This document shows positions 47,072 to 56,293 of a stretch of 64,000 nucleotides of DNA, in pieces. This stretch comes from Capsaspora owczarzaki ATCC 30864 (Eukaryota > Opisthokonta > Filasterea). Location: positions 1,388,885-1,452,884 of the forward strand of contig NW_011887299.1 in the NCBI RefSeq assembly GCF_000151315.2, in the 5' to 3' direction. A model generated the notes under the pieces. It saw only the letters and a list, made by a program, of their open reading frames with translations. It did no database searches and was not told the origin of the DNA. The position numbers and the translations under genes are program-made. Each line of letters begins with the position of its first letter. Within the stretch, counting starts at the first letter, position 1.

Positions 47072-50000
47072 ATGGTGCGTCGAACGGCCACTGCAGCCCA
47101 GCTGTCGGACGAAGACGCTGCCGACCGCAAGAAACCCGCGCTCGCATCCGCATCTGCTGCTGCTGCTGCTCCTCCTGCACCAGGTTTGTCTCTCAACATG
47201 CATATTGAAAATCCCAACAATGCGATTCGATTTTTTGTTTTTGGTTTTTTTTTTTTTTTTTTTTCCTTTGTTTTGCTTGCAACAATTGCAGAATTTGGAA
47301 TTGATTTTTATTATTTTTTTTTTTTACAATTGCTTTTTTTGGGCTTTGATCTGCGTTTTGACAGCAACGAAGCGCGGTGGACGCAAGCCTGCGAAGGCGA
47401 CTGCAGCGGACAGCGAGAGCGACGACGAGGAAGCGACGACAGCGACAACGAGCGCGGTGTCGCGAGGCCGCAAGCGCAAGGCAGAGTCGGACAACGATCA
47501 CACCTCTGACTCTGCTGCTACCGCTGCTCAATCTGCTGCTGCTGCTGCTGCTCAATCTGCTGCTGCTGCTGCTGCTGCTGTCGCGTCTCCGTCGGGCAGG
47601 CCGAGGAGGGCTGCTGCGTCGCACCCGAGCAAGCTGGCGCGCGCGTCGGAATCCACCGAGGATGACGAATCTCGCAGCGACGACAATCATGATGACGATG
47701 ACGAGCATGGCAGTCGCGCATCCAAGGCTGCAGGACGCGGCAAGTCGACTGCCGCCGGGCGAGGTCGCGGCCGTGGTCGAGGCCGTGCTGCTGCTACTGC
47801 TTCATCTGTTGGTCGAAAGTCAGCCCGAAAGCAGCAAGATTCGGACGCGTCTGCAGACGAACAGGATGATGGTGATGATGATGCCGACGATGGCAATGAC
47901 GACGACGACGACGACAACAACGACGGACGTGGTCGCGCGGTTGGCAGAGGAGGAGGTCGCGGTCGAGGCGCGACTGGTCGTGGACGTGCTGTTGGTGGCA
48001 AGGGTGCCAAACCCGCCGCCGCCACAGCCACTGCCACTGGACGTGGAAAAAAGGCCAAGCAAGCGGCTGGATTGAACGCTCGCTTGGCCGAATTTGAAAC
48101 CAAGCCCGCGCTCGATTTGACAAGGCCGCCAAAGCTCCAGGCCGCGATCGCCGGCGCCTCGAACGCTGCCAGCTTTACGACCATCCCGCACGATCGCATG
48201 TCGTACGACACGTCGTGCTGCGCACTCTGCACGGCGCGGGAGACCATCCGCATCGCCGAGCTTGGCGCGCACGACTTGCTCAAGCAGATGCTGGACGATG
48301 TGGCGAACGTCCCGTCGCCCGAGACCCAGCAGAGCGCGGACGTGCTGCGCGATGCCGTCGTCACTGCAGTGCTGCGCAACGACCTCGTCGCGCTCAAGAT
48401 GCTCATCCAAGACATCAAAACCCACCCCAAGCCCAACCGGTACCGCTACTATGGCGGCGGCAGCGACAAGACCGGGCGCGTCACGGTTGAGCCGGACAAG
48501 CTCTTTTCGCAGCACGACACGGGTGGGCAGTCCGAGATGAGCAACTACCATGGGCGCGCGGTGGGCGCGGCTCGCGGCAACAAGCAGGGCAACAACGCCT
48601 TTGCAATGTGGAGCAGCAGCGACCCTGTCAACCAGCAGTCGTCCTACTGCGCGCACATCTTCTTCCGGACCATCCTGCGCTCGCCCCACACGACGCCCGA
48701 GATTATTGACCTTGTCTCGCTCGAAATGAAGGACTTTACCAACTACTGCGGCAACTTTGGCATTTACGAGGCCTGCGAGGCAGGCAACCATCGCGTTGCC
48801 GCGCACATTATCGAGGGGCTCATGGACGTCAAGAGCGTGCCTGGCGCCTTCCGCGACGGTGGCTGGGGCTTCAACCACCTCCACCTCGAGGCGCTCAAGC
48901 TGGACGGCACCAGAGACTTCACCTCGTACCGCCAGCAGCAAATCCAAAAGAAGCCGGCGTGGAACAACCAAATCACGCCCATCCACCTCGCGACGCTCAA
49001 TCCGTACTCCACCAAGTACTTTGAGACGCTGTACACGGAGGCTGGGCACCTGCGCAACGCCGAGGACCGCAACACGCGCGGGCCCATCTTTTTTGCGGCC
49101 GTTTCCTCGTCGCCGGCCGCGCTCAAGTACATCCTGGCCAACCACGTCAACCCGACTGCCATGGACCGCTTTGGCCTGCGCCCGCTCGAGCTTGCCGCCA
49201 AAGCCGGTGCGTCGCACAACATTCCCATCCTGATTGCGGCCATGAATGCGACGCCCGGCGCCACGCGCTTTGACGGCACGTACCTGACCAAGAACAAGCA
49301 GTCCGCAATGCACTTTGCCGTGTACAGCAACCTGGACACCCTGAAGGCGCTTGTGGCTGGCGGCGCCCAGGTCGACGTGGCTGATCGCGACAAGCAAACG
49401 CCACTGTCGTACGCTGCCCGGCTCGGCCGGCTCGACATGGTCGAGTTTCTTCTCCAGCAGAAGGCCGCTGTCGACACCGAGGACAAGTGGAAGCGCACCC
49501 CGCTCGTGCATGCGCTCAAGAATGGCCACGCAGCCATCGTCCAAGTGCTGCTGCGCCACGGCGCGGATCCGACCGCGCTGGACACGTCCGACAACACGCC
49601 ATTGTCGTATGCGGCGGCGTACGGCTTTATCGACTGCGTGCGCTTGCTGGTCGAGTGGGTTGGGGTGGATGTCAACACGCCGAACGCGTGGAAGACAACG
49701 CCCCTCGGCATTGCGGGCCTCAAAGGGCACACAAAGATTGTCGACTACCTCCTGCAGCGCGACGGCGTCGACGTCAACGCCAAGGACAGCTCTGGCCAGA
49801 CAATGCTCCACCACACGTTCGACACCAAGACGGACGCGTCGCTTCGCCAAATCAAGTTCCTCATCAGTCGCAACGCCGATGTCACCGCCGTCGACTCGAA
49901 CGGCAACTCTGCGCTGCACCTCCTCGCTGCGAGCGAGCCGAACGCCAACGATGCCGACACGGCTTCCGCGCTGCTCGACGCCGGTGCGGACATCAACCTG

Positions 50001-56000: not shown

Positions 56001-56293
56001 TTTTTGCAGGATGGAGTGACGATTCCCACTGGCAAAGTCGAGCAACTCATCCCAGGCGAGCAGAACTACTACGACCAGAAGCTGTCGCAGTGGGTCAACC
56101 TTCTGAATTACAACGAGTACATTGGTAAGCGATCGTTTTTTTACGTTTTGTGTTTTGTCTGTTTCGGCTGACTTTGCGGTCGTGGCTCACCAACCGTTTT
56201 TTTTTGTTTTGTTTCTTTTGGTATTTCTGTGTAGTCTACGATCTTTCCCAGATTCAGATCAAATACGTGGTGCTTGTGAAGCAGAAGAGCTAA
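47072..56293 (+). CDS. Giant ankyrin-WGR-PARP poly(ADP-ribose) polymerase
   Basis: Nuclear ADP-ribosyltransferase of 2,752 residues. Exons: 47072-47183, 47365-54515, 54640-54753, 54856-55263, 55581-55880, 56010-56124, 56235-56293, all phases consistent. A basic/acidic N-terminus with RGRGRGR and KRKAES nuclear-signal-like motifs is followed by a conserved block with CCALC, then about 20 ankyrin repeats (roughly residues 560-2100, for example DKQTPLSYAARLGRLDMVEF) interrupted by acidic and Ser tracts. C-terminal: WGR domain (YILWTRWGRIGETGQF, about 2290), helical regulatory domain, and catalytic domain with LLWHGSSIANF (His, about 2586), FGAGVYTADM (Tyr, about 2620) and NEYIVYDLSQIQIKYVV (Glu, about 2730). 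The complete H-Y-E triad predicts chain-forming activity. The layout resembles C. elegans PME-5, not tankyrase, which has a SAM domain and no WGR. Confidence 0.92.
55318..55464 (+). repeat. (GTT)n microsatellite, about 147 bases
   Basis: Uninterrupted GTT run of about 49 copies in the intron between 55263 and 55580 of the ankyrin-PARP gene. Open frames through it encode only poly-Cys, poly-Leu or poly-Val. Confidence 0.98.
55471..55526 (+). repeat. Three copies of a 19-base unit
   Basis: AAAGGAAGAAGGCTCCTCT repeated three times directly after the GTT run, in the same PARP intron. Each copy contains a short imperfect palindrome around GGCTCC. Confidence 0.9.

What the first reader, a model, noticed from the sequence alone, without database searches (positions are those of the whole stretch)
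47072..56293. PME-5-like ankyrin-PARP in a unicellular eukaryote
One gene joins about 20 ankyrin repeats to a WGR domain, PARP regulatory domain and a complete H-Y-E catalytic domain. Known animal tankyrases join ankyrins to PARP without WGR; C. elegans PME-5 is the nearest layout I know. If the host is a protist, either this architecture predates animals or ankyrins were recruited twice. The ankyrin array is split by long acidic and Ser tracts, and the block before it (CCALC, about residues 315-320) is of unknown nature.
Basis: partly seen in the sequence, partly recalled or inferred. Interest (0 to 1): 0.75.

Follow-up and report, generated by a model that had tools for sequence, protein, structure and literature searches.

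The report
Ancient ankyrin-bearing DNA-damage-type PARP enzyme
A single-celled relative of animals seems to carry a giant ADP-ribosylating enzyme of the same kind as the worm protein PME-5, and a front section shared from water moulds and ciliates to worms suggests that this enzyme type arose once, long before animals.

Summary
[quoted passage not shown] Ankyrins and WGR lie in one 7.15-kb exon.

The PME-5-like reading is supported, but the class is not new. It is published as 'Clade 1A' or 'Clade 1-ank', and its presence in C. elegans and Dictyostelium was noted in 2005.

What the tools add: the 'CCALC' region of unknown nature opens a conserved ~250-residue block with a near-invariant loop, SRGG(K/R)EGNNAF. 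A model of it built from nine oomycete, diatom and Paramecium proteins finds this protein (E 7.9e-26), Caenorhabditis PME-5 (2.2e-14), and dictyostelid, fungal and animal members: 108 of 126 sequences, and none of three ankyrin controls. The order of the repeats is shared, and 40 ankyrin-PARPs separate from five PARP1/2/3 rows at 100/100. This favours one early origin over repeated ankyrin recruitment.

The host is very probably Capsaspora owczarzaki. Likely role (inferred): a DNA-break-responsive poly(ADP-ribose) polymerase with an ankyrin scaffold. New member of a known kind, with a useful family signature.

The parts
47072..56293 (+). Whole gene, 7 exons: 47072-47183, 47365-54515, 54640-54753, 54856-55263, 55581-55880, 56010-56124, 56235-56293; 2752 aa
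   Evidence: Spliced and translated; all six introns GT-AG; no internal stop
47072..48206 (+). Low-complexity, acidic and RG/Ala-rich head (residues 1-318; exon 1, intron 1 and the start of exon 2)
   Evidence: Translation; no Pfam match there
48207..49172 (+). Conserved N-terminal block of ankyrin-WGR-PARPs (residues 319-640): degenerate ankyrin-like helices and a conserved loop, running into the first recognisable ankyrin repeats
   Evidence: held-out model from 9 SAR proteins matches residues 327-549 at E 7.9e-26; AlphaFold model
48216..48230 (+). CCALC (residues 322-326), a CCxxC at the start of the block
   Evidence: CCxxC there in 22 of 113 proteins with a long N-block row
48573..48602 (+). 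Signature loop RGNKQGNNAF (residues 441-450); family consensus SRGG(K/R)EGNNAF
   Evidence: G424, R441, G446 and A449 invariant in 53 of 53 sequences chosen for alignment; regular expression in 82 of 113; the tick protein P0066, not in the 53, has lost the arginine
48963..50282 (+). First ankyrin array (about residues 571-1010)
   Evidence: Pfam; AlphaFold solenoid, all ten-residue blocks of residues 540-949 with mean pLDDT 73-98; Foldseek best hit AnkB ankyrin repeats
50283..51227 (+). Acidic, Asn- and Ser-rich linker between the arrays (about residues 1011-1325)
   Evidence: Translation
51228..53582 (+). Second ankyrin array (about residues 1326-2110), with low-complexity inserts
   Evidence: Repeat signatures; order of matches shared with homologues
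54015..54260 (+). WGR domain (residues 2255-2336)
   Evidence: PF05406 E 1.6e-21; strongest of 4 WGR matches in the genome
54366..55032 (+). PARP regulatory (helical) domain, residues 2372-2518, across exons 2-4
   Evidence: PF02877 E 3.3e-23
55075..56281 (+). PARP catalytic domain, residues 2533-2749, across exons 4-7; H2587, Y2621, E2731
   Evidence: PF00644 E 1.9e-48; positions; aligns with human PARP2 through the whole domain

Best explanation
This is the Capsaspora (very probably) member of the Clade 1-ank PARP family, a relative by descent of C. elegans PME-5 and not of tankyrase. The family is old and most likely arose once: an N-terminal block with a near-invariant loop, ankyrin arrays in a largely shared order, and a WGR-PRD-PARP C-terminus were inherited together. 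Most likely mechanism (inferred): the WGR domain senses a DNA break and, as in PARP2, opens the helical regulatory domain; the H-Y-E catalytic domain then makes poly(ADP-ribose) on itself and on partners held by the ankyrin solenoid; PARG removes it. Shown here: gene structure, domains, intact triad, shared N-block and repeat order, tree position beside PARP1/2/3, PARG matches in the same genome. Inferred: DNA activation, nuclear location, substrate docking, the role of the loop.
For: One frame and all domains. The C-terminus matches human PARP2 at 239.7 bits and PARP1 at 218.2, against 23.6 for tankyrase-2. Of the proteins listed by the two C-terminal searches, 58 of 64 and 69 of 72 have ankyrin, WGR and PARP among their precomputed domains (my count of the lists). 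They come from fungi, dictyostelids, oomycetes, a diatom, Paramecium and many animals, including C. brenneri PME-5 (P0127). A model of the N-block from 9 SAR proteins hits 108 of the 126 other sequences at E < 1e-3 (OWN 7.9e-26, P0127 2.2e-14, Dictyostelium 8e-34); the three Ank proteins without PARP give none, none and 4.6, the best reversed sequence 1.4. Order of local matches: longest increasing run 13-32 in 11 ankyrin-PARPs against 6-8 in 3 ankyrin controls. Tree: 40 ankyrin-PARPs on one side of a 100/100 branch from 5 PARP1/2/3 rows. PARG_cat_C matches at two places in the genome. PME-5 is induced by ionising radiation (PMC2491638, passages); PMC2964712 (passages) cites its nuclear, chromatin-linked location.
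Against: Branching among the major groups of ankyrin-PARPs is unresolved, and Capsaspora falls beside fungi (93/91) with one unnamed protein (82/42) rather than beside animals, which is not what vertical descent in a holozoan would give. The outgroup has only five rows, no plant or excavate Clade 1 protein; horizontal transfer is not excluded. With tankyrase-2 added (catalytic part only, end branch 4.49) the ankyrin rows need two changes, not one. The held-out N-block model misses 18 of 126; besides 3 controls these include ankyrin-PARPs over 2300 residues long (P0014 Umbelopsis, P0021 marked partial, P0027, P0053, P0131). The order test uses windows of the N-block too and is weak for some members (P0129 13 of 22, P0063 14 of 28, P0006 15 of 28). 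PMC4245714 concluded that the ankyrin-PARP combination arose several times. No RNA, biochemical or localisation data. HPF1 was not found, in a search without a positive control.
Confidence: 0.8

Rival explanations
1. Ankyrins were joined to a WGR-PARP independently in Capsaspora and in nematodes, so the shared layout is convergence.
For: Ankyrin repeats recombine readily (general knowledge); PMC4245714 says that the ankyrin plus PARP combination arose several times; the patchy distribution needs many losses under a single origin; some long ankyrin-PARPs lack a detectable N-block.
Against: Shared non-repeat N-block and loop, shared order of many repeats, one side of a 100/100 branch against PARP1/2/3.
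Confidence: 0.07
2. It is a tankyrase: an ankyrin scaffold that binds short peptide motifs and a PARP domain that modifies them, without DNA control.
For: Ankyrins plus PARP; Foldseek lists tankyrase-1 ARCs (ranks 17, 19, 31) among many ankyrin hits; source names call animal members 'tankyrase-like'.
Against: No SAM match; WGR and PARP_reg present; catalytic part far closer to PARP1/2 than to tankyrase; ankyrin-B and DARPins rank above tankyrase.
Confidence: 0.04
3. The protein belongs to the family, but its present role is not DNA-damage signalling: the ankyrin array has made it a signalling or chromatin scaffold, and WGR binds something else.
For: Size and ankyrin content; a fungal member scanned has a chromodomain; the tick member has a degraded active site (read).
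Against: WGR, regulatory domain and triad are all intact here; PME-5 responds to radiation.
Confidence: 0.2

Closest known systems
Clade 1A / Clade 1-ank PARPs (C. elegans PME-5, Dictyostelium ADPRT3, Saprolegnia and fungal members)
   Same: Domain order Ank-WGR-PRD-PARP, shared N-terminal block and loop, largely shared repeat order
   Different: This protein has a long acidic/Ser linker and low-complexity inserts, and no chromodomain or C-terminal cysteine-rich region as in the fungal P0013; it keeps CCxxC, which C. brenneri PME-5 lacks
PARP2 / PARP1 / PARP3 (Clade 1 without ankyrins)
   Same: WGR-PRD-PARP C-terminus; 494 query residues align with human PARP2
   Different: Separate branch at 100/100; the same genome has its own PARP1-like and PARP3-like genes
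Tankyrases (Clade 4)
   Same: Ankyrin repeats and a PARP domain in one protein
   Different: No SAM match, has WGR and PARP_reg; weak catalytic similarity (23.6 bits)

Membership tests
Clade 1-ank (Clade 1A) PARP | Ankyrin repeats N-terminal to WGR, PARP_reg and PARP domains in one protein | tested here: met
Clade 1-ank (Clade 1A) PARP | WGR-PRD-PARP region groups with other ankyrin members, apart from ankyrin-free Clade 1 PARPs | tested here: met
   100/100 against five PARP1/2/3 rows; few outgroup rows, inner order weakly resolved
Clade 1-ank (Clade 1A) PARP | Shared N-terminal block with SRGGxEGNNAF loop (feature proposed here, not in the published definition) | tested here: met
Clade 1-ank (Clade 1A) PARP | H-Y-E catalytic triad (said to be conserved in almost all Clade 1 members) | tested here: met
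   H2587, Y2621, E2731
Clade 1-ank (Clade 1A) PARP | DNA-damage-linked, nuclear function (as reported for PME-5) | not testable with these tools
   Only literature on PME-5
Tankyrase (Clade 4) | SAM domain between ankyrins and PARP | tested here: not met
   No SAM in the Pfam scan at E up to 0.001
Tankyrase (Clade 4) | No WGR or PARP_reg; catalytic domain of tankyrase type | tested here: not met
   WGR and PARP_reg present; tankyrase-2 23.6 bits against PARP2 239.7

The most novel reading that the evidence does not exclude
The N-terminal block is an unrecognised regulatory module of near-LECA age. Its near-invariant loop (TG...R...SRGG(K/R)EGNNAF) is a binding element, for a partner, for nucleic acid or for the enzyme's own WGR-regulatory part, that couples ankyrin-bound cargo to opening of the catalytic domain. 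Ankyrin-WGR-PARPs would then be a third ancestral DNA-damage PARP beside the PARP1 and PARP2 types.
Probability: 0.3. Interest if true: 0.6.

Novelty: new member of a known kind. Interest (0 to 1): 0.38.

Why it matters
It turns the question whether PME-5-type PARPs are one ancient family or repeated fusions into a testable statement: a non-repeat sequence signature links them from SAR to animals. If right, an ankyrin-scaffolded DNA-damage PARP belongs on the list of early eukaryotic PARPs, and laboratory members in C. elegans and Dictyostelium, with the one described here, can be used to learn what the loop and the ankyrin scaffold do.

Tried and rejected
Two-gene reading: rejected for the ankyrin-WGR junction, since both lie in one exon. 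Tankyrase membership: rejected. N-block as mere ankyrin similarity: the best match of each of three ankyrin proteins without PARP starts at profile position 196 or later, and none reaches E 1e-3 with the held-out model. Zinc-site reading of CCALC: in 20 of the 22 CCxxC-bearing proteins examined, the three cysteines are constant but no fourth cysteine column is. A histidine column (H544 here) is nearly constant, but it is also nearly invariant among 53 sequences most of which lack CCxxC; left open. Prokaryotic or viral source of the loop: the degenerate DNA pattern gave 0 matches in genome contigs and 0 in viral contigs; an exact pattern, so weak evidence. HPF1: nothing, and no positive control. 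PDB search with the N-block: one hit at E 0.3, not meaningful. Papers on a Capsaspora ankyrin PARP: Capsaspora + ADP-ribose polymerase + ankyrin, 0 papers; of 11 papers listed none is about it by title. Table 1 of PMC4245714, where ankyrin members are noted, is not in the held text I saw, so I do not claim a first description. Support values printed beside the hand-rooted drawing are shifted by re-rooting; I use those.

Full report
Gene and domains. The + strand between 47072 and 56293 holds seven exons with GT-AG introns that splice into one frame of 2752 residues. The second exon (47365-54515, 7151 nt) runs without a stop from the head through both ankyrin arrays and WGR into the regulatory domain, so the ankyrin-WGR fusion does not depend on any predicted intron. 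Pfam gives eight Ank_2 stretches, WGR 2255-2336, PARP_reg 2372-2518 and PARP 2533-2749. H2587, Y2621 and E2731 form the triad. Against solved structures the C-terminal 500 residues score 239.7 bits with PARP2, 218.2 with PARP1, 83.2 with a PARP3 chain that lacks WGR, and 23.6 with tankyrase-2.

Host. The window's genome has 27,456,641 bases in 29 contigs. Capsaspora owczarzaki is given as 27.97 Mb (PMC4007536, passages). PMC4245714 (passages; part 1 of 3 of its section 3.1) reports a PARP4-like protein with VIT, vWA and 14-3-3 domains in Capsaspora and a few other organisms, and mentions actin as a C-terminal addition in some. This genome has one frame with PARP_reg, PARP, VIT, VWA, 14-3-3 and actin matches. 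Capsaspora is therefore very probable, but no marker gene was tested. The genome has four WGR matches: this gene, a PARP3-like gene, a PARP1-like gene, and a gene with WGR, BRCT and PBZ. PARG_cat_C matches lie at two places.

Family. Three protein searches were made. The N-block query gave 9 hits among 6456 candidates, including ankyrin-WGR-PARPs of Parasitella, Cladochytrium and Saprolegnia and three ankyrin proteins without PARP (P0007-P0009) that I used as controls. The C-terminal query gave 64 hits among the 7988 candidates scored: fungi, dictyostelids, oomycetes, a diatom, Paramecium, rotifers, lancelet, nemertean, crinoid and tick, besides unnamed ones. A C-terminal query with the nemertean member gave 72 hits among 5238 candidates: many molluscs, and echinoderms, arthropods, an annelid and nematodes, including a protein named CBN-PME-5 (P0127). 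By my count of the precomputed domain lists, 58 of 64 and 69 of 72 have ankyrin, WGR and PARP; several lack a PARP_reg match. C. elegans PME-5 itself was not retrieved; its C. brenneri counterpart stands in for it.

The N-terminal block. The CCALC region opens a block that aligns with most of these proteins. An iterated profile started from this protein has 113 of 135 sequences with a row longer than 200 residues; this may include an ankyrin-only row such as P0120. In an alignment of 53 chosen sequences, G424, R441, G446 and A449 of this protein are invariant. A regular expression for the loop matches in 82 of the 113 and CCxxC in 22 of the 113; the named bearers of CCxxC are dictyostelids and fungi. 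The tick protein lacks the loop arginine. As a more independent test I built a model only from nine SAR proteins, cut before the first clear ankyrin signature. Against the other 126 sequences and their reversals it hit 108 of 126 at E < 1e-3, 104 of them over more than 100 positions: this protein 7.9e-26, C. brenneri PME-5 2.2e-14, Panagrellus 1.2e-14, Dictyostelium 8e-34, Rhizophlyctis 6.8e-31, Branchiostoma 2.6e-37. The three ankyrin controls gave none, none and 4.6, the best reversed sequence 1.4. The cut point came from the joint alignment, so the hold-out is complete for residues but not for the boundary. The 18 misses (listed) are the three controls, P0069-P0071, several proteins under 1900 residues, and five over 2300 residues (P0014, P0021, P0027, P0053, P0131), of which P0021 is marked partial; the others may be bad gene models or real losses.

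Structure. An AlphaFold model of residues 300-1010 from 29 sequences has mean pLDDT 79.5 and pTM 0.80. It is an ankyrin-type solenoid with two degenerate helical pairs at the N-terminus and a low-confidence stretch (model residues 97-166, ten-residue means mostly 48-68) that contains the conserved loop. Foldseek returns ankyrin solenoids, ankyrin-B first. A conserved but unmodelled loop on a solenoid is what a ligand- or partner-binding element would look like; that is inference.

Colinearity and tree. Of 63 windows of 40 residues across the N-block and arrays, those scoring 45 or more keep their order better in the 11 ankyrin-PARPs tested (longest increasing run 13-32 of 22-41 windows; C. brenneri 19 of 29) than in three ankyrin controls (6-8 of 22-25). 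The test is not independent of the N-block and is weak for P0129, P0063 and P0006. In a 45-row WGR-PRD-PARP tree (40 ankyrin-type rows chosen for breadth from the 135 sequences held, this protein among them, plus five PARP1/2/3 rows), the ankyrin rows lie on one side of a 100/100 branch. Animals with one unnamed row (100/100), fungi (100/99), dictyostelids with one unnamed row (100/100) and oomycetes with diatom-type rows (98/96) each form a group; branching among the groups is open. This protein falls with an unnamed one (82/42) beside fungi (93/91), not beside animals. P0133 and tankyrase-2 were left out of that tree as partial; with both included the ankyrin rows need two changes, tankyrase-2 being on a very long branch.

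Prior knowledge. PMC1266365 (2005, passages) described a C. elegans protein with ankyrins plus regulatory and WGR domains in place of SAM, and a similar one in Dictyostelium. PMC2964712 (2010, passages) defined Clade 1A in Dictyostelium, fungi and Paramecium, left PME-5 unplaced, and inferred at least two acquisitions of ankyrins by PARPs. PMC4245714 (2014) put PME-5, ADPRT3 and a Saprolegnia protein in Clade 1 with ankyrins and said that the combination arose independently several times. The present data agree with separate origins for tankyrase and Clade 1-ank, place PME-5 in the latter, and argue against several origins within it. In the listings and passages that I saw the N-block is not described; none of these papers was read whole, and the library lacks most subscription journals.

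Function. PME-5 is transiently induced by ionising radiation, not dependent on cep-1 in that study (PMC2491638, passages). him-1; pme-5 double mutants, like all the him-1; pme doubles tested, have smaller broods and more arrested embryos (PMC3297586, passages). Together with WGR, regulatory domain, intact triad and PARG, the simplest reading is a DNA-break-responsive PARP with an ankyrin scaffold. Nothing here tests activity.

Verdict. The useful addition is the conserved N-terminal block and loop as evidence for a single origin.

Noticed in passing
L012 1-1767, - strand (around G000:C4:1552817-1552942): Neighbouring exons or frames with a partial WGR match, a BRCT domain and two PBZ (PAR-binding zinc finger) matches, probably one gene without a PARP domain: a possible reader of the same signal.
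   Followed up: partly
L020 2209-8001 (G000:C5), + strand: PARP4-like frame with PARP_reg, PARP, VIT, VWA, part of a 14-3-3 domain and a partial actin match.
   Followed up: partly
window, about 55310-55465: Intron 4 of the gene is largely a (GTT)n microsatellite (seen).
   Followed up: no
P0013 180-224 and 2968-3086; P0010, P0016, P0022, P0024 by precomputed domains: Five fungal ankyrin-PARPs list a chromodomain and a cysteine-rich zf-CRD; in P0013 these lie at the N- and C-terminus, with a PBZ match just below its cut-off. Many CCxxC-bearing fungal members also have two C-terminal CxxC motifs.
   Followed up: partly
P0066 (tick): Degraded active site (KGICLADR where others have GKGIYFAD) and no loop arginine, so it may be a pseudoenzyme (read).
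   Followed up: no
window 56654-57867, - strand: The downstream neighbour on the opposite strand reads like a threonine/serine dehydratase (by eye; no domain search).
   Followed up: no
window 4001-12000: Strong AT skew (0.35-0.48), with GC skew 0.21-0.26 up to 10 kb, unlike the rest of the window.
   Followed up: no
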